Below are positions 146 through 51,857 of a DNA stretch of 52,415 nt, one piece after another. Each line of letters starts with the position of its first letter. Position 1 is the first letter of the stretch. Made by a program: the position numbers and the translations under genes. The notes below the pieces were generated by a model. The model saw only the letters and a list, made by a program, of their open reading frames with translations. It was not told the origin of the DNA and made no database searches. Source of the DNA: Bacillota bacterium (GTDB lineage Bacteria > Bacillota > Clostridia > Peptostreptococcales > Anaerovoracaceae); assembly GCA_017459895.1 (NCBI GenBank), contig JAFUCA010000011.1:1-52415 (forward strand), written 5' to 3'.

Positions 146-321
146 TCTCGAAAAGTCCTTCGCAAGCGTGTGATTATATGGGAAGTTCACGGCTCGGGAC
201 GGTCTGGATTCGAGATTTGAAGCCGCCCGATGCGATGAGATCTCTGACGGCAGGCATTGTCCAGCCTTTGCAGGAAGAAGAATTCGGGTTTCAGCGCATT
301 TCCGATCATCAAAATCTCGAA
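112..321. repeat. Nested inverted repeats, TCTCGAA word (copy 1)
   Basis: TTTTCGAGAT (112-121) pairs with ATCTCGAAAA (145-154), and TTCGAGATTT (209-218) pairs with AAATCTCGAA (312-321). The core TCTCGAA/TTCGAGA is thus used four times in alternating orientation in a gene-free stretch (146-427). The same word builds a second element at 17503-17670. No promoter or coding sequence is evident between 146 and 400. Confidence 0.6.
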
Positions 322-427
322 GATCCGTTCCTTGATATATGCGACCCGGGTTTCGGATCCTTCAGGTGATTGAAAAGATATAGGGTTTCAGTTAAAATTC
401 ATATATATGATCGGCAGGGAAACACCT

Positions 428-1186
428 ATGAACAACAGAGAAAAAAGAGCGTTGATACACCAGAAGCTGGAGGTCATGAAACGTTGTTATCAGGAACGTA
501 ACACAGACAATTTCGATTTGTTTTACGATACGTTTTTTGACAGAAGCAAGATGACTGTCATTATTGGAACGGATAACGGCCCATGGTTCCATTCGATGGG
601 GCAGATCCGCTGGCTGATCACCTACGACTGGGAAAAGTGGGGAAGTCTTCAGATAGATACATGGAACTTCAGAATCTATGAATCAGATAATCATGATGTT
701 GTCAGAGTCAGAGGGGTTCTGGATTTTCAGATGGACCGCGTATGGGACATCGATATTCTTATGATCTTCAGTAAGGGAGTGAATGAATACAGCTGCCGCC
801 TGATGCAGTTTAAGATTCCGCGTAATGAGATCCGTCCGGTAGTGATCCTCAATGGGAGCGAGAAGGAACAGGCAAAATCCGAGAAAGAGATGAAAGATCT
901 GATCACGCTGAATGGAAATGTGAGCAATGATCTGATGCGGGAGCATCTGGCGCAGAGCGTCAGATCAATGCTCCGGGAGCAGAGACCGTATCTTGACAAT
1001 ATCGATGTGCGCGAAGAGATGATCTATATGGAGGAGTGCGGCGATGGGTACCTGTTCGCATTGACCGGGTTCTGTGTGCATAGTGAGCTGAACGCCTTGA
1101 TGCCGTTCCGAATGGTCGGGATAGGACGGGGGTACGGGATCCTGGACGCGGAATTTTCGCACCCATTCGTCAGCGATCTGGGATAA
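428..1186 (+). CDS. Hypothetical protein, NTF2/SnoaL-like appearance
   Basis: A 252-residue soluble protein with no signal peptide or membrane segment. I chose the ATG at 428 because GGCAGGGAA lies 8 bases upstream, whereas the in-frame ATG at 407 has no ribosome site. The sequence reads as two similar alpha/beta halves, each opening with a helix rich in Arg, Glu and Gln (residues ~3-25 and ~140-165) followed by beta strands with conserved-looking Trp and Phe. This resembles tandem SnoaL/NTF2-like cone folds, but I see no catalytic signature and the family call is a guess. It stands alone, followed by a transposase unit, and no operon partner is visible. Confidence 0.6.
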   Translation: MNNREKRALIHQKLEVMKRCYQERNTDNFDLFYDTFFDRSKMTVIIGTDNGPWFHSMGQIRWLITYDWEKWGSLQIDTWNFRIYESDNHDVVRVRGVLDFQMDRVWDIDILMIFSKGVNEYSCRLMQFKIPRNEIRPVVILNGSEKEQAKSEKEMKDLITLNGNVSNDLMREHLAQSVRSMLREQRPYLDNIDVREEMIYMEECGDGYLFALTGFCVHSELNALMPFRMVGIGRGYGILDAEFSHPFVSDLG

Positions 1187-1206
1187 GGCTTATCACAAGA
1201 CAGCAA

Positions 1207-2093
1207 GACAGGGGACGGTTCTCCGTCTTAAAATATAGAAACTGACGCACGTTGCAGAAGAAATCGCCAGAATTTACATATATTGACAAATCTCCATATC
1301 GGTACTATTCTAATCATGAGGTGATGAAGATGCCTAGAAGAGCGCGACAAAGAAGCTGTACCGATATTTATCATGTAATCCTGCGGGGAATAAACCGGCA
1401 GCAGGTTTTCTATGATGAGGAGGACTATGAGTATTTCATTCGTCTTTTGAATCGATTTCAGAACGTGTCTCAATATGAGGTCTATGCATACTGCCTGATG
1501 GGAAACCATATACACCTGCTGATCAAAGTAACTCAGGAGCCGCTAGGAAAAATATTCCAAAGAATCGGTGCTGCGTTTGTTTACTGGTATAACCTGAAGT
1601 ACCAGCGTGTAGGACATCTCTTTCAAGACCGATTCAAAAGCGAACCTGTAGAAACCGAGGGGTATTTTTTGACCGTTCTGAGATATATCATATGGAATCC
1701 AGTAAAAGCCGGACTCTGCGTATCTCCCTTCGACTATCCTTATAGCAACGCGAAGGCGATTCTATCTCAGAGGAGGCCAGTCTTTCCTTGTAATCTTACG
1801 ACCGATGAATTGGCGGAGTATATTGCGCAGGATAAGGAAGATGTCTGTATGGACATCTTTGAGGGACCACGCCGCGGTATGACCGAATCTGCGGCAAAGG
1901 ATCTGATTCGCAAAGAATTCGGAACGACCTTTCCCACAATAAGCAAAGAAAACCGTGAAACGCTGAATTCGTCCATAATTCGTCTTTTCAAACAGGGCAT
2001 ATCGATCCGGCAGCTCAGCAGACTGACGGGAATTTCCAAATCGATTATTGAGAGAGCTGTCAGATAGGATAAGACGGAGAACCGTCCCCTGTC
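1207..2093 (+). mobile_element. REP-associated transposase unit in 24-bp inverted repeats
   Basis: A perfect 24-bp inverted repeat at 1207-1230 and 2070-2093 brackets the transposase gene. Each arm holds its own small hairpin (GACGG-TTCT-CCGTC and its mirror), the structure expected of REP sequences recognised by RAYT/TnpA-REP proteins. The core CAGGGGACGG with a matching hairpin is, from memory, a common REP-type word in Firmicutes. The unit sits between two unrelated accessory genes. Confidence 0.75.
1330..2067 (+). CDS. REP-associated tyrosine transposase (RAYT, Y1 family)
   Basis: This 245-residue protein belongs to the Y1/HUH single-strand transposase superfamily (IS200/IS605-like, RAYT branch), which nicks and rejoins single-stranded DNA at palindromic repeats. 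It opens with MPRRAR and a TDIYHVILRGINRQ strand. The HUH motif is GNHIHLL at about residue 60, and the catalytic Tyr is in LRYIIWNPVKAG at about 120. The C-terminus (residues ~185-245) ends in a helix-turn-helix-like ISIRQLSRLTGISKSIIERAV. Start 1330 is chosen because GAGGTG lies 6 bases upstream. Active-site residues look intact, so it may be functional. Confidence 0.88.
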   Translation: MPRRARQRSCTDIYHVILRGINRQQVFYDEEDYEYFIRLLNRFQNVSQYEVYAYCLMGNHIHLLIKVTQEPLGKIFQRIGAAFVYWYNLKYQRVGHLFQDRFKSEPVETEGYFLTVLRYIIWNPVKAGLCVSPFDYPYSNAKAILSQRRPVFPCNLTTDELAEYIAQDKEDVCMDIFEGPRRGMTESAAKDLIRKEFGTTFPTISKENRETLNSSIIRLFKQGISIRQLSRLTGISKSIIERAVR

Positions 2094-2241
2094 CTGCCTC
2101 AGTTCCCCAGAGCAGCCGGATGAAAGAGATCCGCAGCTTCTTTGAGGGGCGGTTCAGGTGAGTGAGTCAGGGTACGCGGTCAGGGTGCGCTTCAACTTTG
2201 TTTCTGCTACCAGATCGCTCCCACCAGATCACCCACCGGAG

Positions 2242-2497
2242 CTACCATAAAAACATCATTTCCCGGTCAGGATGGTAGGACCCTACCATATAAAGCGGGA
2301 AATGCCTGTTTGATGGTAGGATATTGACTGCATGCAGCAGAGGAGAGAACAAATTTGTTGTCAAGCAATCTTATGTGGGACGATTTTGCTGTCGGCAATC
2401 GTTCTGCAGGTACGCGCCTACCATATCATCTGGTTTTTCGCAGGATATGGTAGCGTGCTACCATAATTGAGCAGGAAATGCGATTTCGTGGTAGGCG
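2242..2497. repeat. Nested palindromic array of CTACCAT/ATGGTAG words
   Basis: Seven exact copies of CTACCAT or its complement lie at about 2242, 2272, 2283, 2313, 2418, 2447 and 2458, plus a CGTGGTAGG variant near 2487. ATGGTAGG-AC-CCTACCAT (2272-2289) is a perfect hairpin. It is nested inside a longer imperfect palindrome whose outer arms also share a CATTTCCCG/CGGGAAATG word (2242-2319). The gap 2094-2620 holds no gene I can support; a 13-codon frame near 2119 (MKEIRSFFEGRFR) may be a C-terminal scrap. Confidence 0.65.
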
Positions 2498-2661: not shown

Positions 2662-2690
2662 ATACAGGCAGCAGGGGAAGAATAATCTAT

Positions 2691-3143: not shown

Positions 3144-4302
3144 AAGCTATATTCTCATGCACCGGGATACGCCGTGTGCGCTCATTGCCATCGACCGTGA
3201 CAGCGGCGCATTGACAGAATACGAGGTCATCCGAAAAGAATATACTCCGTTTCTGGGGAATGCTGATGAACGGCTCATGAAGATATGGTGGGAGCATCGG
3301 GCAGTGCCCGGATCCCGGAAGGAGATGGAAGAAATCATACGGGAAGCCGGATGCGAAAACAGCAAGGGGTATCTCGCGAAGAACCTTGCGCTGAGCATGA
3401 CGGATACCTACTGGATCTGTCCGGTGGAAACGGAACTCTCCTGGCAGGATGTGAACCTGTACCGCAGCACGAAGACCTCTGCAGATGTTGTAACACTTCA
3501 CAATGCGTCCTCGTATGACCCGAATGCATCCCTTGGCGGAGAGATGAATAAGTACTGGGATGTCAGCGGGGATGAACCAGTTCTGGTCAAGAGAGCCTAT
3601 CGATCCTACGGTCAGCAGAGCATCAATGAATTGTTCGCAACGAAAGTGCATGAACGTCAGAATGCGGAGATCCCCTTCGTCAGCTACACAATCGAAACGG
3701 CCGACGATAATGCGGTTCTGTCACGCTGCCGGGCGTTCACTTCGCAGCGGGTCGAGTTCATATCCGCATATGAAATTCTCCATTCCCAGAAGCGGAGAGC
3801 GAGTCGGTCAGAATACGATCAGTTCATCGATGCGTGTGAGAGACAGGGGCTGGACAGAGATGAAATGCAGCGATTCATGGATTATCTGATCCTGAGCGAT
3901 TTTGCCATCAGCAATACGGATGAGCATTTACAGAATTTCGGTGTTCTCAGGGATACAGAAACTATGGAACTCATCGGACCGGCGCCGGTGTTCGATTCGG
4001 GAAACAGCATGTTTTTTGACGTATCGCAGAACCAGCCTTTACAGAGAAAAGAACTCCTGGAGAGAAAAATCAATTCGTTCCACAGCCGGGAAGAAAAGAT
4101 GCTCAGTCACGTAAGAGACCGGGACGCCGTTGATGCTGACGCGCTGCCCACCGATGCAGAAGTGAAAGAGTTCTATGAATCCCATGGGATTCCCCCTGCA
4201 AAGGCTGGCTTCATCGCGGAGAGTTATCATAATAAACGGCTACTTCTGAGAGATTTCCAGAGAGGAAGGAGCATTTCCTTGTTTCGCGAAAAGATAATGT
4301 GA
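3136..4302 (+). CDS. HipA-like Ser/Thr kinase toxin
   Basis: 388 residues. A Gly-rich ATP loop with a nearby Lys (LVKRAYRSYGQQSINE, ~160-175), the catalytic-loop-like NTDEHLQNFGV (~260) and a metal-binding FDSGNSM (~290) match the HipA kinase core. Classic HipA enzymes phosphorylate aminoacyl-tRNA synthetases and stop growth. The N-terminus (MNESYILMHRDTPCALIAID) is a short lead-in, not clearly the usual HipA N-terminal subdomain, so the protein may resemble HipT-type short kinases. Start 3136 overlaps the HTH stop. A paralogue with the same motif order lies at 32985-34190. The target is unknown. Confidence 0.8.
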   Translation: MNESYILMHRDTPCALIAIDRDSGALTEYEVIRKEYTPFLGNADERLMKIWWEHRAVPGSRKEMEEIIREAGCENSKGYLAKNLALSMTDTYWICPVETELSWQDVNLYRSTKTSADVVTLHNASSYDPNASLGGEMNKYWDVSGDEPVLVKRAYRSYGQQSINELFATKVHERQNAEIPFVSYTIETADDNAVLSRCRAFTSQRVEFISAYEILHSQKRRASRSEYDQFIDACERQGLDRDEMQRFMDYLILSDFAISNTDEHLQNFGVLRDTETMELIGPAPVFDSGNSMFFDVSQNQPLQRKELLERKINSFHSREEKMLSHVRDRDAVDADALPTDAEVKEFYESHGIPPAKAGFIAESYHNKRLLLRDFQRGRSISLFREKIM

Positions 4303-5152: not shown

Positions 5153-6466
5153 TTAAAAGTCTGTATTGCTGTAGGGTTTCTGGCTGTAATATAGGGTGGC
5201 ATCCAGCCGCCTAAGAGCCGCGGGGTCATCAGTCCGCACCGCTCCCAGTTCGTACAAAGGCTGGAGCCGCGCCGCGTTCATCAGCAGGGCGTTCAGGTCG
5301 CTTTCGCTGCAGCGGATCGTTACATCCGCGGATGCTCCCGCCTCATCAGAGGATGCTCCCGCAGGATCCGCGGATGCTCCCGCCGCAAGCGTTCCCTGCT
5401 CCAGCAGCCGCCATCCGCCCTGGGGCCCGCCGGCTTCCATCACCAGGTACCGGACAGCCTTTGCGAAGGCGTCCTCGTATTCGATGCGCGCCGTCACGGT
5501 ATCCATTCCTGTGGGGCGGTCTGCCGTCAGACGGAAAAACTCCGGATAGTCCACGATCTTGTACATGTAGCCGATGAACTCCCGGCTGACCTGCAGGTAA
5601 CCGTAGGGCAGATACTCCATGGACAGATCCTGGGGATCGGAGAGAATGTGATAAAAATTCTCATCTCCCGAGGAGATCTTCACCGACTGAGCCAGGTCTG
5701 CCTGCCGGCGCAGATACTCCAGAAAGCTGGTGAGTGTCTCCGCGTCAAGGTGAATCAGTTCCGTGACGTTGATCCGGTTCTGGGTGAAGTTGGTTTCGCT
5801 GGCGTTCTCGAACCGATAGGCCAGGTAGCCGGTCATCCTGCCATCCTGGAACGCCCCCAGACGGATGGTCACCTCATCGGCACGCAGATCCCCCAGCTCC
5901 TCTCCCGTCTTGCGGATCATGCCGTGGGTCACGGCAGCCGCAGCGGTATAGCAGTCGATCATGGCATCGAAATCGTCCTCGTTGAGGAATCGCAGATCCC
6001 TTGTGATCCCGCCCTTGGGCAGGTTGACGGTGGGAAGATGATACAGAGCCCGTTTGCTTCCCAGGCCGTAGCCCATGTTGCGGTAGAACGTGATGTTGAA
6101 GGGCAGGAGGGGCAGGACCGGGCTGTTCAGCTCTTTCGCCCGGTCTTCGTAATACTTCATCATCTGCAGCGCCAGGCCCTTCTTCTTGTGCAAAGGATGG
6201 ACGGCCAGGGACATCAGCCCCAGCGCCGGGGTCATGACGCCGTACAGATTCATATCGAAGTGCACCAGCTTCATGGAGGCCATCAGGGTCTCGCCGTCAA
6301 ACAGGCCGACGTATTCCACGTCCGGAAGCTGGATGTTGCGCAGATTTCTCTGCCGGTGCTCCTCGTAGCAGGCAGCGTCCAGATCCTTGAAGGCCGGATA
6401 GGCGTTCAGGTAGATGGTCAGGTATTGTTCGATGTCCTGGGGTTTCAGTTCCCGGATGGTATACAT
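5153..6466 (-). CDS. Eis-like GNAT acetyltransferase with SCP2-type C-terminus
   Basis: 437 residues. The N-terminal GNAT domain carries MSLAVHPLHKKKGLALQMM (acetyl-CoA loop, ~85-105) and LLPFNITFYRNMGYG (~120). A second GNAT-like half (~155-290) and a C-terminal sterol-carrier-like domain follow. This matches the Eis/YvbK-like family, some of whose members acetylate amines on aminoglycosides or peptides. An unusual Ala/Gly/Ser/Asp-rich insert (~365-385) is built from three seven-residue repeats. AAAGGAGG precedes the start, and 14 bases separate it from the next gene. Confidence 0.82.
   Translation of the reverse strand: MYTIRELKPQDIEQYLTIYLNAYPAFKDLDAACYEEHRQRNLRNIQLPDVEYVGLFDGETLMASMKLVHFDMNLYGVMTPALGLMSLAVHPLHKKKGLALQMMKYYEDRAKELNSPVLPLLPFNITFYRNMGYGLGSKRALYHLPTVNLPKGGITRDLRFLNEDDFDAMIDCYTAAAAVTHGMIRKTGEELGDLRADEVTIRLGAFQDGRMTGYLAYRFENASETNFTQNRINVTELIHLDAETLTSFLEYLRRQADLAQSVKISSGDENFYHILSDPQDLSMEYLPYGYLQVSREFIGYMYKIVDYPEFFRLTADRPTGMDTVTARIEYEDAFAKAVRYLVMEAGGPQGGWRLLEQGTLAAGASADPAGASSDEAGASADVTIRCSESDLNALLMNAARLQPLYELGAVRTDDPAALRRLDATLYYSQKPYSNTDF
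5330..5383 (-). repeat. 21-bp in-frame tandem repeat in the Eis-like gene
   Basis: GGATGCTCCCGC recurs at 5330, 5351 and 5372, a strict 21-base period. On the coding strand this gives three seven-residue units starting GASAD, GASSD and GASAD. It adds a flexible linker just inside the C-terminal domain and probably varies in copy number between strains. Confidence 0.75.
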
Positions 6467-6490: not shown

Positions 6491-7639
6491 TTATTTCGAA
6501 AGGATCGGGACGCCTTCCTCGATCAGCTCCTGCATATACTCATCGATCAGCGCAAGGCCTGTCTCCAGTTCATGAGCGTGGGACAGGGTGATCCGGAAGG
6601 TGTGAGGCATATAGAAGCAGTCGCCGTGGCAGACCAGCACGCCTTTGCGGTCCAGCAGATCGTCGGCAAACTTCTGTGCCGGTACATCCAGATCATAGTG
6701 TACCAGATAGGTGGTGGAATAGGAATCCGCGTACTGATGCAGATAGGGATTTTTCTCGATCCAGCGGTCGATGACCTTCTTGTTGGCTTCCACGATGCCG
6801 CGGGATCTGGCAAAGATCTTCTCCCGGTGCTTCAGTGCCAGACCGAAGATCCATTCGTCGAAGACGCCGCCGCAGATGGAATCATAGGATCTCCAGTTGA
6901 AGAGGGTCTTTCTCGTCTGCGCATCCCGGCAGATGATCCAGCCCACCCGGGTGCCGGCCATGGAATAGATCTTGGAGGAGCTGGCGGTAACGATCGCCTT
7001 CTCGTACAGATCCACGAAGGAGGGCATGTACTCCTCGTCCAGTCCCCGGTACATCTCATCGCAGATCACCCAGGCATCCGCAGCCTTTGCGATCTCGATG
7101 ATCTCCTGCATTTCATCCAGCCGCAGCAGCGCTCCGGTGGGGTTGTTGGGATTGGTGAACATGATGGCCTTGGTATTCTGATCCACGCGGCTGCGCAGCT
7201 CCTCCATGTCCAGCACGTAGCCCGCTTCCGGCTTCAGCCACACGTCCCGGACCTCGGTCCCGATGGAGCGGGGGATGGAGAAAAACTGCTGGTAGTTGGG
7301 CATGATGGAGACGATGTTGTCCTCCGGATCCAGTAGACCGTAACAGACCGTGCTGTTGGCGCCGGTACCGCCGTGGCAGAGGATCACATCTTCCGCCTGG
7401 ATGCCCCGGTACATGTCCGCGATGGCCTGCCGGGTCTGGGGAGTTCCCTCGAATCTGGGATAGCCCAGATTCATCTTCGCCAGGTCCTTAAGAAATGCAT
7501 CCATGTCCTCGCCGGTGAGCTCGAACAGTTCCTCCACGGTCATGGGGAGCACGCAGCTGCCGCCCAGGTAATATTTGTTCTTCTCGCTGTCACAGGCCGG
7601 GTTCAGCCAGTTTTCCAGATCAAAGCTGTCGATTCTCAT
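6491..7639 (-). CDS. PLP-dependent class I/II aminotransferase
   Basis: 382 residues, fold type I. The PLP lysine is in SSSKIYSMAGTRVGWI (~225-240), preceded by NPNNPTG (~165) and VICDEMYRGL (~190), which hold the usual Asn, Asp and Tyr contacts. It should move an amino group between an amino acid and a keto acid; aspartate- or capreomycidine-synthase-like members are possible, but the substrate is unknown. Strong AAGGAGG before the start. Sharing an operon with an ornithine-cyclodeaminase family enzyme and acetyltransferases suggests breakdown or modification of a basic or unusual amino acid. Confidence 0.85.
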   Translation of the reverse strand: MRIDSFDLENWLNPACDSEKNKYYLGGSCVLPMTVEELFELTGEDMDAFLKDLAKMNLGYPRFEGTPQTRQAIADMYRGIQAEDVILCHGGTGANSTVCYGLLDPEDNIVSIMPNYQQFFSIPRSIGTEVRDVWLKPEAGYVLDMEELRSRVDQNTKAIMFTNPNNPTGALLRLDEMQEIIEIAKAADAWVICDEMYRGLDEEYMPSFVDLYEKAIVTASSSKIYSMAGTRVGWIICRDAQTRKTLFNWRSYDSICGGVFDEWIFGLALKHREKIFARSRGIVEANKKVIDRWIEKNPYLHQYADSYSTTYLVHYDLDVPAQKFADDLLDRKGVLVCHGDCFYMPHTFRITLSHAHELETGLALIDEYMQELIEEGVPILSK

Positions 7640-10679: not shown

Positions 10680-12095
10680 TTACTTCCTGTACTTCTCCAT
10701 GATATCTCTGTTCAGATCAAGCGGCGGCTCCTGGTCTGCGGGCAGCAGGCACTCATATACCCGGCCGTCCATGCGCTCCCGCCATTCCGCCTGTGCCGCT
10801 TCCAGGATCTCCGGCTGGCAAAGCAGATCTGCCGCAGTCATGGAAATCACCTTCGCTGCACAGTCCATGCTCTTCTGGCCCATGGTGTCACCTGCACAAC
10901 GAGCCACACCCCAGTGGTGCCATCCACAGCCCTGCATACCCATAGCGATCCAGGGGGCTGCGTATGGTGCGCACCAGCTGTATTCCGAGGTGTCACACAG
11001 CACTGTGAATCCACCTTCAAAGGGATCCAATTCCGTAGGCAGTCCGGTCTCCGGCTGTCCAATAGCTCTCTGAATCGCCTTCGCCTTCTCCTGTTCTTCT
11101 TCTGAAAAGGCTGGTACACCGATCGTCTCCATATTCTTATAGAAGCGTTCCGCCAGCACCTTGTTAGGAATCTTATGATGGGTAACCGTGATGACCTCTT
11201 CCTCTACGGTGGTCTCCGTAGCAATGGCTCCAGCCTTTGCACAGTTATCCACGCGCTTCAGGGTATCCAGCATTTCTTCTGTCGTGGTGAATCGTCCGAT
11301 GACCCACACTGTCGTATAATCCGGCACTACACTGGGAAATTCCGGACCTGTCGCAGTGTACGTGTAGTTAATGGTGTTTGCCGCATCCGGCGGATTGCCC
11401 GGATAAATGTGCTCTCTCAGGATGTCGATGCCGTGCCCCATGAGCTGGCCTGCATCCAATGCGCTTCTCCCATGCCAGGGGGAATTGCCATGGGATGTTC
11501 TCCCTTTGAAATGATATTTCTTGCTGAAGTATGCCTGGCAGCTGTCGTAATTGGCTTTGGTGTAGCTCCAGGGATGCCAGTCAAGAAAGGCATCCACACC
11601 ATCGAAGCATCCGGCTCTCCCCATGTAGGGTTTGCCCAGACACAGCTCCTCTGCCGGGGTTCCAAAGAGCTTCACGGTTCCCTGTAATCCAAACTTCTCC
11701 ATTGCATTCTTAACAGCAATGGCTGCCTTGGCGCCGCCGGTACCGAGAAGATTGTGCCCGCATCCCTGGCCGGGCGCACCTGGCACCACCGGACATTTCT
11801 CCAGTTTCTCTCCGTCCTGAGAAAGACCCGGCAGAGCATCGTATTCGGCACTGATCCCGATGACCGGGCGGCCGCTGCCATAGGTTGCAATAAATGCTGT
11901 GGGCATTCCTGCAACACCTGTCTCAACCTCGAATCCATTCTTCTTCATCAGATCGATAAGGGCTGCTGAGGACTCAAATTCCTGCAGAGAAAGCTCCGGG
12001 TGTTCCCAGATAAATTTCTCCGTTTCATAGAATTCCTGTGTGTTTTCTTCGTTCCATTGAACGATGTAGTCCTTGACTTCTTTTAGGTTTTTCAT
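10680..12095 (-). CDS. M20 family amidohydrolase, AbgB-like
   Basis: 471 residues of the M20/ACY1 metallo-amidohydrolase family. Metal-site elements appear in order: GISAEYDALPGLSQ (~75), GCGHNLLG (~110), FGTPAEELCLGKPYM (~145) and a late HHWGVARCAGDTMGQKSM (~400). A dimerisation domain lies in the middle. This order and length fit p-aminobenzoyl-glutamate hydrolase subunit B and related aminoacyl amidases. It should hydrolyse an amide such as an N-acyl amino acid. GGAGGA precedes the start. First gene of the sigma-54 transcript with the symporter. Confidence 0.85.
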   Translation of the reverse strand: MKNLKEVKDYIVQWNEENTQEFYETEKFIWEHPELSLQEFESSAALIDLMKKNGFEVETGVAGMPTAFIATYGSGRPVIGISAEYDALPGLSQDGEKLEKCPVVPGAPGQGCGHNLLGTGGAKAAIAVKNAMEKFGLQGTVKLFGTPAEELCLGKPYMGRAGCFDGVDAFLDWHPWSYTKANYDSCQAYFSKKYHFKGRTSHGNSPWHGRSALDAGQLMGHGIDILREHIYPGNPPDAANTINYTYTATGPEFPSVVPDYTTVWVIGRFTTTEEMLDTLKRVDNCAKAGAIATETTVEEEVITVTHHKIPNKVLAERFYKNMETIGVPAFSEEEQEKAKAIQRAIGQPETGLPTELDPFEGGFTVLCDTSEYSWCAPYAAPWIAMGMQGCGWHHWGVARCAGDTMGQKSMDCAAKVISMTAADLLCQPEILEAAQAEWRERMDGRVYECLLPADQEPPLDLNRDIMEKYRK

Positions 12096-14208: not shown

Positions 14209-15414
14209 ATGATTTACACCGTATCCGATTATTACAACACCTTCAAAGAGCATCTGCAGATCGTCGCCGGAAGCGGCGGTATGTCGAATCCCGTCACCGC
14301 CTGCGGACTGCTGGACTATGAACTGATCCCGGAGCTGAAGGAAGCCTATTTCCAGTCCAACTTTCACGAGCATCAGCTGATCCTCACGTCTCTGGTCTAC
14401 ACCCGGGACAATCCCTACGGGATCCTGGACGCGGTGAAGCATCTGGCAAGCAAAGGCTGCAGCGGCCTTGTGATCAAGAACGTCTTCCGCCTGCCCATCT
14501 CCGAATCCATCGTACGGTATGCAGACGCGAAGAACTTCCCCCTGTTTCTGATCCCGGTCCGCGGCCTGGAGCTGAGCTTCGAGGATATCATCTACACCGT
14601 CAACCGGCGCAGCGAGCTGCAGCAGCACGCGGAATACCACCGCAGCATCCTGGACCGGCTGATGGCGCAGGATCTTCGCGGGGAGGAGGCCAGCCTTTGC
14701 GCGATGCAGCTGAACCCGTCCTTTCGTGACCGGTTCTTCGCGGTGTTCGCCCAGCTGGATGAATTTATGAGCGACAGGCAAAAGCTGGATCTCATGAACA
14801 ATTACATTAACTCGGATCACAGCAGCTTCGAGGACTTCGCCGGATTGCTGGAGGACGGGCTGATCCTGATCAAGAGCTCGGACCAGCTGCAGAATTATTA
14901 CACGGATTTCTATATCGACGGAATGCTGGACAGTCTCGGGGCGGCGGGAGACGTAACGGCCGCCGGCATCAGCGATATGCACCACAGTTTGGAGGATCTG
15001 GGAGAGGCGCTGAAGGAGGCCTTCTTCGCGGCGCGGTATCAGAACATCTCCCCCGGCAGACGCCGGTACAGTGAGCTTGGCAGCTACCGGCTTCTGTTTC
15101 AGATCTGCGATGAGCCGCATACGCGAAGCTATGTCCGCAGGGTTCTGGATCCCATCGAAGAGTACGATTCCATGAACAGGGGCTCCCTGATGGAGACGCT
15201 GGAGGAATATGTGAAGGCCGACTGCGATATGGCAAAGGCTGCCGCGGTCCTGTCTCAGCACGAGCAGACGATCCGATACCGGCTGAACCGCATCTTTGAG
15301 ATCACGGATCTTGACCGGAAATCCTACGAGGACATGCAGCAGCTCGTCCTGGCATGCCGGCTGAAGCTGGCGAGGCAGGCGATGACCGGATCCGGGCCGG
15401 CGGCAATGAATTGA
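14209..15414 (+). CDS. PucR-family transcriptional regulator
   Basis: 401 residues. The N-terminal PucR/DUF2-like sensory domain (~1-125: IYTVSDYYNTFKEHLQIVAG ... LASKGCSGLVIKN) is followed by a middle domain (~130-320) and a C-terminal helix-turn-helix of the PucR type (~330-385: LEEYVKADCDMAKAAAVLSQ, then EQTIRYRLNRIFEITDLD). PucR-type proteins respond to small metabolites, including purines. ATG 14209 is preferred because AGGGAG is seven bases upstream. It is divergent from the sigma-54 activator, so it may help control that gene or the nearby purine permease; this is inference. Confidence 0.85.
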   Translation: MIYTVSDYYNTFKEHLQIVAGSGGMSNPVTACGLLDYELIPELKEAYFQSNFHEHQLILTSLVYTRDNPYGILDAVKHLASKGCSGLVIKNVFRLPISESIVRYADAKNFPLFLIPVRGLELSFEDIIYTVNRRSELQQHAEYHRSILDRLMAQDLRGEEASLCAMQLNPSFRDRFFAVFAQLDEFMSDRQKLDLMNNYINSDHSSFEDFAGLLEDGLILIKSSDQLQNYYTDFYIDGMLDSLGAAGDVTAAGISDMHHSLEDLGEALKEAFFAARYQNISPGRRRYSELGSYRLLFQICDEPHTRSYVRRVLDPIEEYDSMNRGSLMETLEEYVKADCDMAKAAAVLSQHEQTIRYRLNRIFEITDLDRKSYEDMQQLVLACRLKLARQAMTGSGPAAMN

Positions 15415-17758: not shown

Positions 17759-18697
17759 ATGAATATCGAACCGGCAGAGGGAAACCCGGATCGCCGGGCG
17801 CGGCAGATCTACGATCGATTCCTGATGCGCGCTTCCAGAGACGATGAGTTTCACGACTGGGCGGAATACCGGACCGCTCTGACGGACTTCATCCGGAAGA
17901 GCACGCCGGCCGGCGGCTCGCTTCTGATTCTTGGCGCCGGCAAGTGCAACGACCTGGATCTTGGGAGGCTGGCGGACCACTGCGGACGGATCACGCTGTC
18001 GGATTACCGGCCGGAGCTGGCGGAAGAAGCCTGGCGCCGGTACGGATTGTCCCCGTCGGAGCGGCTGGATTTCGCCGAATCGGATTATGTGGGGATCACG
18101 GACGAGGCGTATGTGGAATATACGAGGTTGCTGCTGGAGGTAATGCAAAGGCTGGAGGAAGGCGCAGGAGATAGCCTGCAGGAGGCGGCCGGTCCGCAGC
18201 TGCGCGCATTGCTGGATGGCATGGAGCGGATCTACCGGGACAACGAGACCTATGCGGTACGGCTGGGCGAGAAGGACTATGACAACGCGGTCGTCTGCGG
18301 GGTGCACAGCCAGTTGAACAATTCCTTCCGGGGGCTGTTTCAGTACGCTCAGAAGGATGCCGAGGACCGGCGGGGGAAGCTTCGGTTTGCGGAGGAGCTG
18401 AATGCCGCGGTTTTCGCGGCGAGCCGGGAGCACACGGGGCATCTGGTGCGCCGTTTTAACGAAGCGGTCTTCGCCGCCGTCCGGCAGGGAGTGGTCTACG
18501 GCTATGAGAAGAGCATCCTGTACACCCCGAAAGGGGAGCTCAGCCCTGTGATTGCTACGGTGGACGGAGCGAGACAGGCGGAAGAAGCCATTGCGGATGT
18601 TCCAGCAGAGTATGCGATGAACTGCCTGTGGCCCCTGTCCCGCAGGAGAGGCATCCGGTTCGAAATGTCCATCTGCTATCTGCCGGTGAACGGCTGA
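17759..18697 (+). CDS. Methyltransferase-like protein of unknown role
   Basis: 312 residues. SLLILGAGKCNDLDLGRLADHCGRITLSDYRPE (~53-85) looks like the SAM-binding strand-loop (ILGAGxCxD) and the acidic second-strand end of a class I methyltransferase. The rest, including a Leu/Glu-rich helix (~115-150) and CGVHSQLNNSFRGLFQYA (~180), I do not recognise. AAAGGAGG precedes the start. The purine permease begins 21 bases downstream on the same strand, so the two are probably co-transcribed. Substrate unknown. Confidence 0.65.
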   Translation: MNIEPAEGNPDRRARQIYDRFLMRASRDDEFHDWAEYRTALTDFIRKSTPAGGSLLILGAGKCNDLDLGRLADHCGRITLSDYRPELAEEAWRRYGLSPSERLDFAESDYVGITDEAYVEYTRLLLEVMQRLEEGAGDSLQEAAGPQLRALLDGMERIYRDNETYAVRLGEKDYDNAVVCGVHSQLNNSFRGLFQYAQKDAEDRRGKLRFAEELNAAVFAASREHTGHLVRRFNEAVFAAVRQGVVYGYEKSILYTPKGELSPVIATVDGARQAEEAIADVPAEYAMNCLWPLSRRRGIRFEMSICYLPVNG

Positions 18698-20461: not shown

Positions 20462-21057
20462 TATCTTAGGATCCTTTCCAGCTGGGGGAGCATGATGGCG
20501 GCGATCTCGGCGTGGCCGGCCTCCGACAGGTGCAGGCCGTCCAGGTAGAGGGATCTTCCGGTCTGTAGATCCCCGGGATCCGCCAGCCTTTGCATCATGG
20601 GGGCGAAGAGGTCCAGGCGGTTGCAGAGAAAGGCCTCCGAAAAACCCTTGCTCCATTCGTTCAGCGAAGCAAGCTGCTCGTTCAGGCGGCGAAAATCGCA
20701 CACCGGCTGCCACAGAGGAGAGATCATCTCCGGGACGCAGGGGATGGGCGTTGCGATGACAGGTTTGATCCCGTGGTGGAACAGCTGGTGGATCATCGCC
20801 ATGAAATTGTTCTTGACGATGTCCGTGCTGCCGCAGCAGATGAGATCGTTCGCCCCGCCGATGAGCAGCGCCCGGTCCGGCCGTTCCCCCACGCAGTCCG
20901 GGAGCAGGCGGCAGAGCATGCCGGAGGTTGTGTCCCCGCTGATGCCGCGGTTTAAGATGTCCGCAGAGGTTTGCTCCTGCAGCAGGGAGGTCCAGCGCCG
21001 GCCGGGATCCACCATGGGACCGACCGTGAAGCTGTCTCCGAGACAGACCAGTTTCAT
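20461..21057 (-). CDS. SGNH/GDSL-type esterase
   Basis: 198 residues. Block I is GDSFTVG (Ser ~8), block II Gly is in NRGISGDTTSGM (~38), block III is GGANDLI (~67), and the late D-x-x-H is DGLHLSE (~173-176). All four SGNH elements are present. It has no signal peptide, so it is likely cytosolic and removes acyl groups from a small substrate. AAAGGAG precedes the start, 13 bases after the AEC transporter. It is the second gene of a sigma-54-driven unit AEC-esterase-(Crp fragment). Confidence 0.85.
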   Translation of the reverse strand: MKLVCLGDSFTVGPMVDPGRRWTSLLQEQTSADILNRGISGDTTSGMLCRLLPDCVGERPDRALLIGGANDLICCGSTDIVKNNFMAMIHQLFHHGIKPVIATPIPCVPEMISPLWQPVCDFRRLNEQLASLNEWSKGFSEAFLCNRLDLFAPMMQRLADPGDLQTGRSLYLDGLHLSEAGHAEIAAIMLPQLERILR

Positions 21058-37804: not shown

Positions 37805-37929
37805 AAATAAGAGCATATCAAACGGGATCCGCTACAGAACAGAAATCCAGCCTTTGCGAGAAAAAATAAACATTGAAATTCCAACATTTTCGGTCGTAAT
37901 CAAGGAAGTTTTCTGAATGTGACACACAC

Positions 37930-41494: not shown

Positions 41495-43249
41495 ATGGCA
41501 GAGATCATTATCATGCCGAAGCTCGGTTTCAATATGAACGAAGGCAAACTGGTGCAGTGGTACAAGGCGGAGGGAGACTCCGTGGCCAAGGGCGAGCCGC
41601 TGTTCTCAGTGGAAACAGATAAAACCAACATGGACATCGAGGCAACTTCCGACGGCGTCGTCCGCAAGCTGTTCATCGAGGAGGGCGAGACCCTTCCGGT
41701 CACACTGCCCATCGCCATCGTCGGCGGGGCGGACGAGGACATCGCAGCGGATCTGGCGGATGCTCAGGCACAGCTGGCAGGTGCGGGCGTGGAGACAGAA
41801 GAAGCGGCTCCGGCAGCTGCGGCTCCCGCGGCGGATGCAAAGGCTGGTGCGGCAGAGGATACGGCTGCTGCGGGAAGCGCTTATGACTATGACATCGCCG
41901 TCATCGGCGGCGGCCCCGGCGGATACGTCGCGGCCATCAAGGGCGCGCAGCTGGGCAAGAAGGTCGTGATCGCTGAGAAGGAGAATTTCGGCGGCACCTG
42001 CCTGAACGTGGGCTGCATCCCGACGAAGGCGCTCCTGCGCAGCGCGGAATCCCTGAAGGAAGTCAAAGAAAGCGCGGCCTTCGGCGTCATCGATGTGGAT
42101 GTTGCCGACGCGAAGCTGGATCTGGTCAAGGTCCAGGCCAGAAAGAAAAAGGTCGTCGGACAGCTGGTGGGCGGCGTCCAGGGTCTGCTGGGCAAGAACG
42201 GCGTTGCCGTCAAGAACGGTGAAGCGGTCCTGAAGGATGCGCATACTCTGGAAGTGGGCGGCGAGACCGTCACTGCGGAGAACGTCATCATCGCTACCGG
42301 ATCCGTCTCCAAGGGTCTTCCGATCGAGATTTCCGATCAGATGAACGTGATGACCAGCACCGAGGCGCTGGATCTGGAGAAGGCTCCGGAGAGCATCGCC
42401 ATCATCGGCGGCGGCGTCATCGGCATCGAGTTCGCATACCTTCTGTCCAGCATCGGAACGCAGGTCACTGTGGTTGAGTTCCTCGACCGGATCCTGCCCA
42501 TGGTAGACGAAGAAATCACACAGCAGGTCACCGCGCATCTGCAGGAGCAGGGCGTGACCATCTATACATCCGCGAAGGTCACCGAGATCACAGCGGACGG
42601 CGTGAAGTTCGAGAAGGACGGCGCCGTGAATGAAGTGAAGGTTGAGACTGTCCTCATGTCCGTAGGCAGAGCGCCGCGGCTGGACGGCATCGATACCGAA
42701 GCGCTGGGCATCAAGACGGAGCGCGGCGCTATCGTCACCGACAGCAGACTGCAGACATCCGTGCCGGGGGTCTATGCCATCGGTGATGTCAACGGCAGGG
42801 TCATGCTGGCCCACACCGCATCCGCGGAAGGTCTGGTTGCCGTGAAGAACATCTGCGGCGAGAAGGCGGAGATGGATTACGACAAGATCCCCAGCGCCAT
42901 CTATATCCAGCCGGAGATCGCCAGCATCGGTCTGACCGAGGCTCAGGCGAAGGAAAAGTACGGCAAGGTCAATGTCGGCCGGTTCCCGATGATGGCCAAC
43001 GGCAAGGCGAAGATCCAGGGCGAGGAAAGAGGCCTGGTCAAGGTCATCGCGGAGCCGAAGTACGGTGAGATCGTCGGCGTGCATCTCTACTGTGTCCACG
43101 CGACGGATATGATCGCAGAGGCCGCGGCGGCAATGAAGCTGGAAGCGACGCCGGAAGAGATCGCAGCCACCGTGCACCCGCATCCGACCGTATCCGAGGT
43201 CGTCATGGAGGCGATGGAAGCTGTCACCGGGAAGGCGATCCACTGTTAG
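41495..43249 (+). CDS. E3 dihydrolipoamide dehydrogenase with N-terminal lipoyl domain
   Basis: 584 residues. A lipoyl domain (~1-75, ETDKTNMDI) and Ala-rich linker precede a complete E3: FAD motif DIAVIGGGPGGYVAAIKGAQLG (~131), redox pair GGTCLNVGCIPTKAL (~165-180), NAD motif IAIIGGGVIGIEFAYLLSSIG (~305) and the C-terminal HPHPTVSE with its catalytic His (~568). It reoxidises dihydrolipoamide with NAD. E3 with its own lipoyl domain is known in some Gram-positive complexes. The N-terminal region looks recently copied from the E2 gene. AGGAGG precedes the start. Confidence 0.92.
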   Translation: MAEIIIMPKLGFNMNEGKLVQWYKAEGDSVAKGEPLFSVETDKTNMDIEATSDGVVRKLFIEEGETLPVTLPIAIVGGADEDIAADLADAQAQLAGAGVETEEAAPAAAAPAADAKAGAAEDTAAAGSAYDYDIAVIGGGPGGYVAAIKGAQLGKKVVIAEKENFGGTCLNVGCIPTKALLRSAESLKEVKESAAFGVIDVDVADAKLDLVKVQARKKKVVGQLVGGVQGLLGKNGVAVKNGEAVLKDAHTLEVGGETVTAENVIIATGSVSKGLPIEISDQMNVMTSTEALDLEKAPESIAIIGGGVIGIEFAYLLSSIGTQVTVVEFLDRILPMVDEEITQQVTAHLQEQGVTIYTSAKVTEITADGVKFEKDGAVNEVKVETVLMSVGRAPRLDGIDTEALGIKTERGAIVTDSRLQTSVPGVYAIGDVNGRVMLAHTASAEGLVAVKNICGEKAEMDYDKIPSAIYIQPEIASIGLTEAQAKEKYGKVNVGRFPMMANGKAKIQGEERGLVKVIAEPKYGEIVGVHLYCVHATDMIAEAAAAMKLEATPEEIAATVHPHPTVSEVVMEAMEAVTGKAIHC

Positions 43250-43419: not shown

Positions 43420-43530
43420 TGTCTGAGGGGGAATCCTCAGCCTTTGCAGATCGATACCGCTTGTCCCGGACGCGACGATGGCGTATACTGAGGAAGAGAT
43501 TATCCGCATGAGGCGAAGAGAAAGGGGTAA

Positions 43531-47079: not shown

Positions 47080-47876
47080 GCCCGGGAGGCCTCTGTCCAC
47101 AGATCCTCCCGGCCGTTTCTGCGGCGGCCGCGGACGATTACCAGAACGCAGAGGATCGCCAGGACGATGGCGCCGGCCAGGCCGCTTTCCGCTCCGAAGA
47201 GAATGTCCTGACTGAAATCCCATCCGGTGTGGATGCCGCAGACGGCCCAGAAGCTACCGTAGTAATAGACGATCAGAGCAAACAGCAGCCCTGCGGTCAG
47301 GACCTGCAGCATGCCGGCGAAGGAAGCGTCAAACAGAAGCCGGTGCAGGAGGCAGCTGAACACCGCGCTGCCCAGGATCGCGGCGGCGGGATGGCGGTAC
47401 CTGCGGCGCAGCTTCTGGTACAGGAAGCATCGGACGACCAGCTCCTCAGCGCCGGCCCGGAGGAAGATCCCAAGCAGGGCGGCGGCCAGGGGAAGCAGAT
47501 CCATGGGATGAAAGGTCAGGTCACTGCTTCCGGTGAGAACGGCGAAAAGGATGCAAAGGCTGCTCAGTCCCAGGCCGGTCAGAAGTCCGGCAAGCCCCAT
47601 CCGCAGCGTATTGCCGCGGCGGTTGTAGGAAATGGCTCTGCGCATCGGGCGGTCGGGCGGATAGAGCAGGATGACCGCCAGGCAGAGGATCCAGACGCCG
47701 ATGTATTCCGAAAGCGAAGCGGGAAGGGCAGAGCTCACCTGAGGAATGCGCAGCAGAAGCTGTCCCAGCAGCCGCCCGGCAGGCACCAGCAGGAAGGCGA
47801 TGCCCCAGGCGAGGGGAAGGATATCCGACCACTTTCCGTAGGGGCGGAGGATTTTTTTCTGAAATGGGGTTGTCAT
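47064..47876 (-). CDS. CPBP-family intramembrane protease (CAAX/Abi)
   Basis: 270 residues with about eight membrane helices. Motif 1 is GAEELVVRCFLYQKLRRRY (E-E-x-x-x-R, ~148-166), motif 2 His is in FSCLLHRLLF (~183) and motif 3 is GIHTGWDF (~222). These are the expected active-site positions of the CPBP/Abi glutamate-type intramembrane proteases. Roles in the family include peptide processing and self-immunity; no peptide gene is seen nearby. ATG 47876 is chosen because AAGGGATC precedes it. It is divergent from the LysR gene, which may regulate it. Confidence 0.82.
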   Translation of the reverse strand: MTTPFQKKILRPYGKWSDILPLAWGIAFLLVPAGRLLGQLLLRIPQVSSALPASLSEYIGVWILCLAVILLYPPDRPMRRAISYNRRGNTLRMGLAGLLTGLGLSSLCILFAVLTGSSDLTFHPMDLLPLAAALLGIFLRAGAEELVVRCFLYQKLRRRYRHPAAAILGSAVFSCLLHRLLFDASFAGMLQVLTAGLLFALIVYYYGSFWAVCGIHTGWDFSQDILFGAESGLAGAIVLAILCVLVIVRGRRRNGREDLWTEASRAYETV

Positions 47877-49724: not shown

Positions 49725-49950
49725 GACGATGATCTCCTGATAAACCGTGGCTTCTACTATATTGTAACCGAAGATGATCCTTCGGTAAATCTGAAATAAA
49801 TTAATATATTCATTAGATTAACTTAATACATTGGAGCGTGCAAAGGCTGGAGCCGCCCGGCGATGGGGCGTGACCGTTTGGTGGGCTTCTAATGTGCATT
49901 TAACCTGGGTCTGCTATGGTGAAGCCGGATGGGTATTCCGGGAGGTGCTT

Positions 49951-50676: not shown

Positions 50677-50804
50677 TTCATAATTCGAGACGACAACTGC
50701 GGACACCGCCAGTAAGCCGATCCATGGTCAGATTAATTCTGCCACCGGTAAAGGTTCCAAATATCCTTGCTGATAAACCGGGAACAATCATACCCCCAAA
50801 GTTC

Positions 50805-50846
50805 AAAAGGGAGTCCACAGAACCGCGGTTCTGTGATCTCCCTTTT
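50805..50846. terminator. Long perfect-core palindrome, possible bidirectional terminator
   Basis: The centre 50816-50835 is a perfect 20-bp palindrome around CCGCGG. Outer arms AAAAGGGAG (50805-50813) and CTCCCTTTT (50838-50846) also pair. The T-run at the end suits termination on either strand. Confidence 0.6.
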
Positions 50847-50873
50847 ATGACTAATTTTATCGGTGTCCGCTAC

Positions 50874-50955
50874 CTTCCGGCACATTCGTCCGGTAATGCT
50901 TTCAGGTTTTATCGTTGCCTACCAACTTCCGGCACATTCGTCCGGTAATACTTTC
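50874..50955 (+). repeat. Two direct 30-bp repeats
   Basis: 50874-50903 and 50926-50955 agree at 29 of 30 bases, separated by 22 bases. Each contains CCGG-CACATTCGT-CCGG, a small direct pair of CCGG. With only two copies and a short gap this is not a CRISPR array; tandem operator or duplication scar are the options. Confidence 0.6.
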
Positions 50956-51094
50956 GGATTTACGTGTTAGCCCACGGGCAGGATGCGGCCTGCCGTCCTA
51001 AGAGAATTATAATCCGGCTTGTTGTCAGATTCAACAGAAAGTTAATCCCGATGAAAGAGAAACAGGTGGTCTGCGCATATTTCAACTATCGTGC

Positions 51095-51544
51095 CTACCG
51101 CATCAGCTGGCCGCCGTTCACATCGATGGTGGCTCCGTTGATGTAGGTGTTGTGGACGAGGAAGGCGATCACTTCGGCAAGTTCCTCCGGCTGGGCGGCG
51201 CGGCCCAGGGGAATGCCGTCGGCGGTGACGCCTTCTTCTTTTGTCATGGGTGTTTCCACGACGCCCGGGGAGATGCAGTTGCAGAGGATCCCATAAGGCG
51301 CGCCGTTCAGGGCGAAGCATTTCATCATGGATTCCAGGCCTCCCTTGGAGGCACAGTAGTGGGCGCCGGAGAAGAAGCCGCCCCGCTGTCCGGCAATGGA
51401 GGTGAGGGCAATGATCCTGCCGCTGCGCTGCTCCTTCATCTTCCGGTAGACAGCCTTTGTGAGAAAGAATGCCGCCCGGAGATTGACGTTCATCATCCGG
51501 TCCCATTCGTCTTCATCGATCTCTTCAATGGTCTTCGTAACACC
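51095..51544 (-). pseudogene. 3' part of a short-chain dehydrogenase (SDR)
   Basis: From AGVTKTIEEIDEDEWDRMMNVNLRAAFFL through IIALTSIAGQRGG, the active-site HYCASKGG (Y-x-x-x-K) and CISPGVVETPMT to INGATIDVNGGQLMR, this is a normal SDR C-terminal two-thirds. The Rossmann TGxxxGIG start and the first ~85 residues are gone: homology stops at the N-N-A-G motif, where the sequence switches to a fragment of an aldolase gene read the other way. Without the NAD site it cannot work. Confidence 0.75.
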
Positions 51545-51857
51545 CGCAAGGTGGTTCAGGCTGCAGGGGAATACGGCGCTGCAGTCGAGTGCGAGATCGG
51601 TGTGGTGGGCGGCAGCGAAGGCGGAGACTATGAACACAAGATCCGCTACACCGATCCGCTGCGGCATCCGCAAGGTCAATATCGCCACCGCCAGTTTCAT
51701 GAGCACCATGGAACACGCGAAAGCCTACCTGAACGGGGATGGGCCAGCCTTTGCATCGGGCGCGCCGAACTACTTCGGCATGAGTGAAGCCATGGTGCAG
51801 GGGACCTGTGAGAACGTGAAGCATCACATCCGCGTGTTCCGGATGGAGAAGGTGTAG
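51539..51857 (+). pseudogene. Internally deleted class II ketose-bisphosphate aldolase
   Basis: TRKVVQAAGEYGAAVECEIG and VVGGSEGGDYEHKIRYTDP match the middle of a class II fructose/tagatose-bisphosphate aldolase. At about 51657 the frame shifts and the sequence becomes GIRKVNIATASFMSTMEH ... NYFGMSEAMVQGT and VKHHIRVF, the aldolase C-terminus. Roughly 70 or more residues between are deleted, and everything before the first fragment is missing. It joins the SDR fragment head-on near 51540. Confidence 0.7.

What the first reader, a model, noticed from the sequence alone, without database searches (positions are those of the whole stretch)
262..51754. A 10-12-mer, TGCAAAGGCTGG, is strongly over-represented like a genome-wide architecture or uptake motif
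Seen: 18 exact GCAAAGGCTG (either strand) in 52 kb, against about 0.1 expected from equal base use; 12 extend to GCAAAGGCTGG and 9 to TGCAAAGGCTGG. Copies sit in unrelated genes in two reading frames and in at least seven intergenic sites, and one pair forms a hairpin immediately after a stop codon (29276-29299). Known: uptake sequences of Neisseria and Pasteurellaceae show this mix of coding, intergenic and head-to-head terminator copies; no such motif is established in Clostridia as far as I know. In genes, 8 of 11 copies read GCAAAGGCTG on the coding strand. Inference: a species-level motif for uptake, recombination or chromosome organisation. Near-variants (GCAAAAGGCTGG at 34275, CAAAGGCTG at 48070) may be decayed copies.
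Basis: partly seen in the sequence, partly recalled or inferred. Interest (0 to 1): 0.82.

Follow-up and report, generated by a model that had tools for sequence, protein, structure and literature searches.

The report
DNA-uptake-like tag in Clostridia
A draft genome of the Clostridia carries hundreds of copies of one 12-letter DNA word, related species carry altered versions of it, and the best explanation is a self-recognition tag for taking up DNA, a kind of signal known so far only from two families of Gram-negative bacteria.

Summary
The window holds 21 exact GCAAAGGCTG; the draft genome holds 401 TGCAAAGGCTGG against 0 for the reversed control. Codon usage does not explain it (164 coding copies against 4.5 after synonymous shuffling, all six strand/frame classes). 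Intergenic density is about twice coding density, there is no overall polarity (85:85), and copies arise by base change. Head-to-head pairs exceed tail-to-tail pairs 10 to 2. In 33 of 49 species of the genus the core GCAAAGGC is abundant, with species-specific tails (dialects); 16 lack it. On a ComEC tree the carriers form essentially one clade. Nearly all genomes examined keep ComEC, ComEA-like and DprA genes and a Tad-type ATPase; N-methyl type IV pilins were found in only 2 of 14. Best explanation (0.75): a DNA uptake sequence with dialects, like that of Neisseriaceae, evolved independently and probably read by a Tad pilus or ComEA. Uptake itself is untested, the machinery is equally present in non-carriers, and site positions turn over fast. 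The listings of my literature searches showed no Gram-positive counterpart.

The parts
262..271 (-). motif copy, TGCAAAGGCTGG, intergenic by my gene calls
4198..4207 (+). motif copy, TGCAAAGGCTGG, in called gene 3136-4302 (sense)
5455..5464 (-). motif copy (C...T flanks), in called gene 5153-6466 (sense)
7081..7090 (-). motif copy (C...C flanks), in called gene 6491-7639 (sense)
11231..11240 (-). motif copy, TGCAAAGGCTGG, in called gene 10680-12095 (sense)
14450..14459 (+). motif copy (A...C flanks), in called gene 14209-15414 (sense)
14691..14700 (-). motif copy (C...G flanks), in called gene 14209-15414 (antisense)
15232..15241 (+). motif copy (G...C flanks), in called gene 14209-15414 (sense)
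18145..18154 (+). motif copy, TGCAAAGGCTGG, in called gene 17759-18697 (sense)
20584..20593 (-). motif copy, TGCAAAGGCTGG, in called gene 20461-21057 (sense)
21580..21589 (-). motif copy (C...C flanks), in called gene 21071-22030 (sense)
22094..22103 (+). motif copy (T...T flanks), intergenic
23876..23885 (+). motif copy, TGCAAAGGCTGG, in called gene 22626-24470 (sense; sigma-54 activator domain)
29276..29299 (.). head-to-head pair of motif copies (29276-29285 +, 29290-29299 -): hairpin directly after the stop codon of 28526-29275, no T-tract
37848..37857 (-). motif copy (C...G flanks), intergenic
41837..41846 (+). motif copy, TGCAAAGGCTGG, in called gene 41495-43249 (sense; lipoyl domain plus pyridine nucleotide-disulphide oxidoreductase)
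43438..43447 (-). motif copy (T...A flanks), intergenic
47553..47562 (+). motif copy (T...C flanks), in called gene 47064-47876 (antisense)
49840..49849 (+). motif copy, TGCAAAGGCTGG, intergenic by my gene calls
51745..51754 (-). motif copy, TGCAAAGGCTGG, in called gene 51630-51857 (antisense)

Best explanation
The motif is a DNA uptake sequence (self-recognition tag for natural transformation) of a clade of Clostridia in the genus of 'Firmicutes bacterium UBA1191'. SHOWN: a directional, non-palindromic word of 12 letters (TGCAAAGGCTGG, with weaker outliers TnA before it and CC after it) stands about every 6 kb, and its 10-letter core about every 2.7 kb, on both strands in nearly equal number, in all reading frames and more densely between genes; related species carry the same core with other tails; the carriers form essentially one clade on a ComEC tree; nearly all genomes examined have transformation genes. 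INFERRED: a DNA-binding subunit at the cell surface, most likely of the Tad/Flp pilus (for example the TadE-like subunit with two conserved YH-x3-C/C-x2-C modules) or the membrane-anchored ComEA, binds the motif in double-stranded DNA from lysed kin, pilus retraction brings it to ComEA and ComEC, one strand enters and DprA/RecA recombine it. Because fragments with the motif are preferred, alleles that gain it spread, so copies build up by point mutation wherever coding constraint allows (molecular drive), and a shift in receptor specificity creates a new dialect.
For: Abundance: 401 12-mers, control 0; commonest 12-mer of a 450-kb sample. Sharp mismatch spectrum: 85 exact against at most 24 for any single substitution. 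Not codon bias: 164 against 4.5 (largest of 30 shuffles 9); strand/frame classes 54/10/28/23/27/22; intergenic 0.63 against 0.34 per kb. No overall polarity: 85 same, 85 opposite to the local gene majority; a 160-kb stretch with 87% of coding bases on one strand has 31 + and 27 -. Mostly substitution, not insertion: 114 of 122 site comparisons ungapped, random positions 7735 of 8040. Outlying bases in 41 intergenic copies: T 0.59 at -4, A 0.56 at -2, T 0.83 at -1, G 0.83 at +10, C 0.59 at +16. Dialects: the 12-mer is abundant in 5 of 49 genus genomes (401, 185, 155, 148, 96), 0-12 in the other 44; core GCAAAGGC at 221-545 per Mb in 33 of 49; tails CTGG, CAAC, CAGT, CA, CC/CT, CTTT found de novo. 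Clade: 23 carriers and 11 non-carriers need 2 changes, shuffled mean 9.4, 0 of 500 as low; fork support 92/87. Head-to-head pairs 10, tail-to-tail 2. Machinery: ComEC in 40 of 49, 17 of 18 of the good genomes, the window genome's protein above the ComEC/Rec2 cut-off; DprA 16 of 16; short ComEA-like HHH_3 proteins 15 of 16; T2SSE-family ATPase 14 of 14, Tad loci read in 8 genomes. Tad genes serve transformation in Micrococcus luteus (PMC4322843, abstract) and Tad pili DNA uptake in Liberibacter crescens (PMC8513845, passages).
Against: No uptake or binding has been measured and no receptor identified. Competence genes and the Tad locus are just as present in species without the motif, so they do not predict it; conversely ComEC was not found in 9 of 49 genomes, among them the carrier G009 (79% complete). 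Site positions are not conserved: 11 of 93 comparisons with motif-positive relatives keep the core in place, 0 of 27 with motif-negative ones, and an identical 10-mer at motif sites (6 of 114, 5%) is hardly commoner than for random gene 10-mers (4%). Motif sites are gapped slightly more often than random positions (8 of 122 against 305 of 8040). Intergenic copies lean 21:12 towards the local gene direction. The copy number (401 12-mers in 2.5 Mb) is below the 943 and 4265 given for two Neisseria species in PMC3630211 (passages). Hairpin pairs lack T-tracts. All 49 genus genomes are drafts of about 30 contigs or more.
Confidence: 0.75

Rival explanations
1. A Chi-like recombination hotspot read by the clade's AddAB/RecBCD-type nuclease.
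For: Chi sites are abundant, short and lineage-specific, and one per about 5 kb is a Chi-like spacing (recalled); the tail GCTGG happens to resemble E. coli Chi (recalled). Intergenic copies lean 21:12 towards the local gene direction.
Against: Chi is oriented with replication (recalled); here orientation over all sites tested is 85:85 and 31:27 on a strongly polarised contig. Twelve specified letters is long for Chi, Chi gives no reason for head-to-head pairs, and tails differ between species of one genus.
Confidence: 0.07
2. A binding site for chromosome organisation (segregation, nucleoid occlusion, domain structuring).
For: Spread over the sampled contigs, spacing slightly more even than random (CV 0.88 against 0.98 +- 0.07, p 0.04).
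Against: KOPS-like signals are polar; parS, matS and nucleoid-occlusion sites are palindromic and far fewer (recalled). No overall polarity. Restricted to one clade inside one genus with changing tails.
Confidence: 0.07
3. Remnants of a dispersed mobile repeat (REP, MITE or insertion-sequence ends).
For: Hairpin pairs after stop codons resemble REP elements; motif sites are gapped slightly more often than random positions (8 of 122 against 305 of 8040).
Against: No conserved flanking unit; 114 of 122 coding sites sit in ungapped orthologous stretches; most copies are single and coding.
Confidence: 0.03
4. Codon-pair or amino-acid usage bias.
For: The sense frame 0 class (Ala-Lys-Ala) is the largest of the six: 54 of 164.
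Against: All six classes occupied, intergenic density higher, synonymous shuffle gives 4.5; not abundant in 44 of 49 genomes of the same genus as the 12-mer, or in 16 of 49 as the core.
Confidence: 0.01
5. Self-marker for a restriction or defence system, or a methylation target.
For: Non-palindromic asymmetric targets occur in type I and III and BREX-like systems (recalled).
Against: Such targets have fewer specified letters and are not enriched to this degree (recalled); the motif also has outlying bases. Methylation was not testable.
Confidence: 0.05

Closest known systems
DNA uptake sequence (DUS) of Neisseriaceae and its dialects
   Same: 10-12 letters, directional, hundreds of copies, conserved core with species-specific tails, coding and intergenic copies, head-to-head pairs, relatives without it; even an AT before the core (intergenic copies read ATGCAAAGGCTGG) as in AT-DUS (PMC3630211, passages).
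   Different: Unrelated letters; Clostridia instead of Neisseriaceae; fewer copies; hairpins without T-tracts; N-methyl type IV pilins not detected in 12 of 14 genomes, so the receptor is unlikely to be a ComP relative; strong turnover of positions.
Uptake signal sequence (USS) of Pasteurellaceae
   Same: Short over-represented word with weaker flanking positions; both strands; several frames (details of USS recalled).
   Different: Other letters, other phylum; the receptor predicted there is a type IV minor pilin (PMC12616744, title and passages).
Tad/Flp-pilus-dependent DNA uptake of Micrococcus luteus and Liberibacter crescens
   Same: Tad locus plus ComEC (and ComEA here) as the uptake genes common to the genomes examined.
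   Different: No uptake motif was mentioned in what I saw of those two papers (abstract; passages).
Chi sites
   Same: Abundant, lineage-specific, recombination-related short word.
   Different: Chi is polar with replication (recalled); this motif is not.

Membership tests
DNA uptake sequence (DUS/USS) | 9-12-letter word in large excess over chance genome-wide | tested here: met
DNA uptake sequence (DUS/USS) | Present on both strands, in several reading frames, and between genes | tested here: met
DNA uptake sequence (DUS/USS) | Head-to-head pairs in excess, often as transcription terminators | tested here: inconclusive
   10 against 2 tail-to-tail, 6 of 10 intergenic, but no T-tracts
DNA uptake sequence (DUS/USS) | Dialects with a conserved core that follow phylogeny | tested here: met
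   presence of the core follows the ComEC tree; that individual tails follow it was not tested, and tails rest on 20-160 kb per relative
DNA uptake sequence (DUS/USS) | Host has natural-transformation genes | tested here: met
   but equally in motif-negative relatives
DNA uptake sequence (DUS/USS) | A surface receptor binds the motif (ComP in Neisseria) | not testable with these tools
   candidate TadE-like subunit and ComEA only by sequence
DNA uptake sequence (DUS/USS) | Motif raises uptake or transformation | not testable with these tools
   needs a cultured isolate
DNA uptake sequence (DUS/USS) | Depleted in recently acquired DNA | not tested
   low-density stretches hold metabolic clusters, no prophage recognised by eye; no statistics
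Chi site | Orientation bias with replication | tested here: not met
   85:85 against local gene majority, used as a stand-in for replication direction; intergenic subset 21:12
KOPS/FtsK-orienting sequence | Strong polarity along replichores | tested here: not met
   (same stand-in)
REP/MITE repeat | Longer conserved unit, inserted between genes | tested here: not met

The most novel reading that the evidence does not exclude
Sequence-specific self-DNA recognition arose independently in Gram-positive Clostridia on a Tad/Flp pilus: a TadE-like pilus subunit with two tandem YH-x3-C/C-x2-C (probably zinc-binding, recalled as Ada-like) modules, or the Flp pilin or ComEA, reads the motif, and changes in it produced at least six dialects within one genus.
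Probability: 0.35. Interest if true: 0.92.

Novelty: new variant of a known kind. Interest (0 to 1): 0.85.

Why it matters
[quoted passage not shown] A third, independent origin in Clostridia would show that the trait evolves repeatedly and probably with another pilus, would give a genus with many dialects for studying how receptor and motif co-evolve, and would predict that bacteria of this clade, relatives of which come from animal gut samples, transform naturally. It also gives a practical handle: tagging DNA with the right dialect might make such bacteria genetically accessible.

Tried and rejected
Codon-pair bias: rejected by synonymous shuffling and frame distribution. Chi and KOPS: rejected for lack of overall polarity, with gene direction as stand-in for replication direction; the intergenic subset leans 21:12. 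Mobile repeat: rejected by flank analysis and ungapped orthologues. Positional conservation as support: tried and not found; the excess over shifted positions (11 against about 0.03) does not allow for protein conservation, so I do not count it as support. An earlier count said 12 shared sites; the right count is 11. Even spacing: weak (p 0.04). A second type IV-like locus (T2SSF protein, four small membrane proteins, PilT-family ATPase) as the uptake pilus: its ATPase has strong matches (E below 1e-70) in 28 of 49 genomes and none in the motif-positive genomes G015 (98% complete), G020 (96%) and G039 (91%), so it does not track the motif; drafts may miss it. PDB sequence search with the TadE-like family: one match, E 0.44, to an unrelated chain. 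Pfam Ada_Zn_binding on its C-terminus: E 1.3, below cut-off, so the zinc reading is recalled, not shown. Low-density stretches as mobile DNA: metabolic clusters by eye, untested. Control: of 30 named loci of at least 15 kb, 29 not matched to a genome of the genus have 0-3.7 GCAAAGGC per 20 kb against 3-17 in the 20 own stretches (the thirtieth, L110, is the genus member G023, 6.2); the motif is the top 10-mer in 14 of 20 own stretches, while two controls have unrelated words at 8 and 6 copies (L151, L153).
Full report
WHAT WAS CHECKED. With one mismatch there are 40 against 3.6 in 100 shuffles, and Markov models of order 1-4 expect 0.12-0.35. The draft genome (2,495,951 bases, 55 contigs, 93% complete, 5% contaminated) has 195 + 206 copies of the 12-mer and none of the reversed control.

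THE MOTIF. In 450 kb of the genome the 12-mer is the commonest 12-mer (85 copies); any single substitution has at most 24. The flanks are otherwise unconserved, except for weak positions that stand out best in the 41 intergenic copies: T at -4 (0.59), A at -2 (0.56), T at -1 (0.83), G at +10 (0.83), C at +16 (0.59) and +17 (0.51), counted from the first G of GCAAAGGCTG as 0. So the full signal reads about TnATGCAAAGGCTGGnnnnnCC. The C at +16 is also seen in antisense (0.58) and sense (0.45) copies.

WHERE IT SITS. Using a simple gene caller of my own (starts are approximate), 206 copies of the 10-mer in 550 kb fall into 164 coding and 42 intergenic (0.34 and 0.63 per kb). Coding copies occupy all six strand/frame classes, and shuffling synonymous codons within genes gives 4.5 on average, 9 at most in 30 trials. 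Orientation against the local gene majority is 85:85 (170 sites in stretches with a clear majority), and a 160-kb piece with 87% of its coding bases on one strand has 31 against 27; the intergenic subset leans 21:12. In 114 of 122 comparisons with orthologues the site lies in an ungapped stretch, so most coding copies arise by base change; random positions are ungapped in 7735 of 8040. Spacing is a little more even than random (CV 0.88 against 0.98, p 0.04).

HAIRPINS. Ten places in the genome have two 10-mers head to head 2-30 bases apart, seven of them 2-6 apart; tail-to-tail there are two. Six of ten are intergenic and four lie within 5 bases after a stop codon by my gene calls, as at 29276-29299 in the window (RNA fold -21.4 kcal/mol for 61 nt, z -2.8). 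I see no T-tract after any of them, and the terminator scan around the window's pair finds nothing. The terminator role is therefore not supported.

RELATIVES AND DIALECTS. The genus holds 49 genomes here. The 12-mer is abundant in five (401, 185, 155, 148, 96) and occurs 0-12 times in the other 44. The 8-letter core GCAAAGGC is abundant in 33 of 49 (221-545 per Mb) and not in 16 (42-191 per Mb; my division by the rounded sizes; the cut at 200 is mine and G021 at 191 is borderline). In 273 genomes of 91 other genera of the family it is lower, the highest row that I noticed being G066 with 343 in 1.7 Mb, about 200 per Mb, against 170 for its control. De novo word counts in sampled stretches find the same core with other tails: GCAAAGGCAAC in G012, GCAAAGGCAGT in G003, TGCAAAGGCA in G019, TGCAAARGCA in G010, G020, G033 and G036, CGCAAAGGC(C/T) in G015, GCAAAGGCTTT in G023, TTGCAAAGGCCA in G011; no such word stands out in G008, G024, G025, G027, G032 and G044 (20-160 kb per relative, so tails are approximate). 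On a ComEC tree of 34 genus members and 4 outgroups the 23 carriers and 11 non-carriers need two changes, shuffled mean 9.4, 0 of 500 shuffles as low; the fork that unites the carriers has support 92/87, and the one non-carrier inside it is the borderline G021. The other 15 genus genomes are not in the tree. Gain once and later diversification is the simplest reading; open forks near the base leave details unsure.

TURNOVER. Genomes of the same dialect are distant (median protein identity about 77% over 26 proteins between the window's genome and G009). Only 11 of 93 site comparisons with motif-positive relatives keep the core in place, and 0 of 27 with motif-negative ones; comparisons are not independent. 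At five of the eleven the tail has changed from CT to CA while the core stays. Identical 10-mers are hardly commoner at motif sites than elsewhere in genes (6 of 114, 5%, against 4%). So the consensus is kept while positions come and go, which fits continuing renewal rather than inheritance of old copies, but gives no support from positional conservation.

WHO IT IS. Some more distant hits are labelled Clostridiales Family XIII. The GTDB family name Anaerovoracaceae is recalled. The name and habitat of the window's own genome are not known to me.

MACHINERY. ComEC matches in 40 of 49 genomes, 17 of 18 good ones, with the window genome's copy at G000:C8 passing the ComEC/Rec2 cut-off; the nine misses include the carriers G009 and G011. 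Short HHH_3 proteins occur in 15 of 16, the window genome's having SLBB plus HHH like ComEA (below the comE cut-off of NCBIfam but above that of the ComEA repeat domain). DprA is in 16 of 16. A T2SSE ATPase is in 14 of 14; eight genomes read in detail have a Tad locus: CpaF-like ATPase, membrane proteins that I take by eye for TadB/TadC (the first not called in G038), a 38-58-residue Flp pilin, TadE-like subunits. N-methyl (PF07963) pilins were found in 2 of 14. The Flp pilin reads TQITDFVN in five motif-positive genomes and TEITDFVN in three motif-negative ones, which may be only ancestry. One TadE-like subunit (L236:13749-14501) ends in two modules YH-x3-C ... C-x2-C whose cysteines and histidines are invariant in eight genomes while the middle of the protein varies. 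It is my favourite receptor candidate, but it is present in motif-negative species too and its DNA binding is inference.

HOW IT MOST LIKELY WORKS. A surface protein of the Tad pilus or ComEA prefers DNA with the motif; retraction and ComEC bring in one strand; recombination spreads alleles that carry the motif; copies accumulate by mutation where constraint is low; receptor changes found dialects. Steps up to the genome pattern are shown; binding, uptake and drive are inferred.

LITERATURE. Neisseriaceae dialects with a CTG core: PMC3630211 (passages). The two Gram-negative families as the only ones known: PMC12616744 (passages). No candidate word of 10 or more letters in Veillonella: PMC5397411 (passages). 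Tad genes or pili in DNA uptake: PMC4322843 (abstract) and PMC8513845 (passages). Uptake words in terminators: PMC1852404 (passages). Searches for an uptake word in Firmicutes or Clostridia, for the motif letters and for k-mer studies listed no counterpart; I saw 15 of 101 and 10 of 23 papers, and the library holds only open-licence papers.

Noticed in passing
L237:7070-10891 (G000:C34): Unusual small type IV-filament-like locus: T2SSF/GspF-like protein, four short proteins that look like one-helix membrane proteins, and a PilT-family ATPase above the PilT/PilU cut-off; the window genome has no N-methyl pilin match, and the ATPase is patchily distributed in the genus.
   Followed up: partly
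L236:13749-14501 and relatives (alignment A2): TadE-like pilus subunit with two tandem cysteine-histidine modules at its end, conserved in the eight genomes compared, with no relative above cut-off in Pfam (sub-threshold TadE only), NCBIfam or PDB sequences.
   Followed up: partly
G000:C14:1334-2386 and G000:C34:335836-336888: The same pilT-like gene occurs at 100% identity on two contigs, which suggests a redundant contig in the draft (stated contamination 5%).
   Followed up: no
L076 and A1: ComEC diverges fast: 47% identity (best segment) to the same-dialect genome G046 (L090), while seven proteins comparable with G046 have a median of 76%.
   Followed up: no
L011 (G000:C6:40001-60000): Cluster of short shell-protein-like genes, aldehyde dehydrogenase-like genes and a glycyl-radical-type enzyme (by eye), probably a bacterial microcompartment operon, with only four motif copies in 20 kb.
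   Followed up: no
window 12446-14005, 22176-24470, 35525-37627: Three proteins with sigma-54 activator domains in 52 kb.
   Followed up: no
G004 stretches (L029, L030, L180, L181): A motif-negative species in which AGCCAAAGTC (5 copies against 0.1 expected in 80 kb) is mildly over-represented and shares CAAAG; possibly another weak dialect.
   Followed up: no
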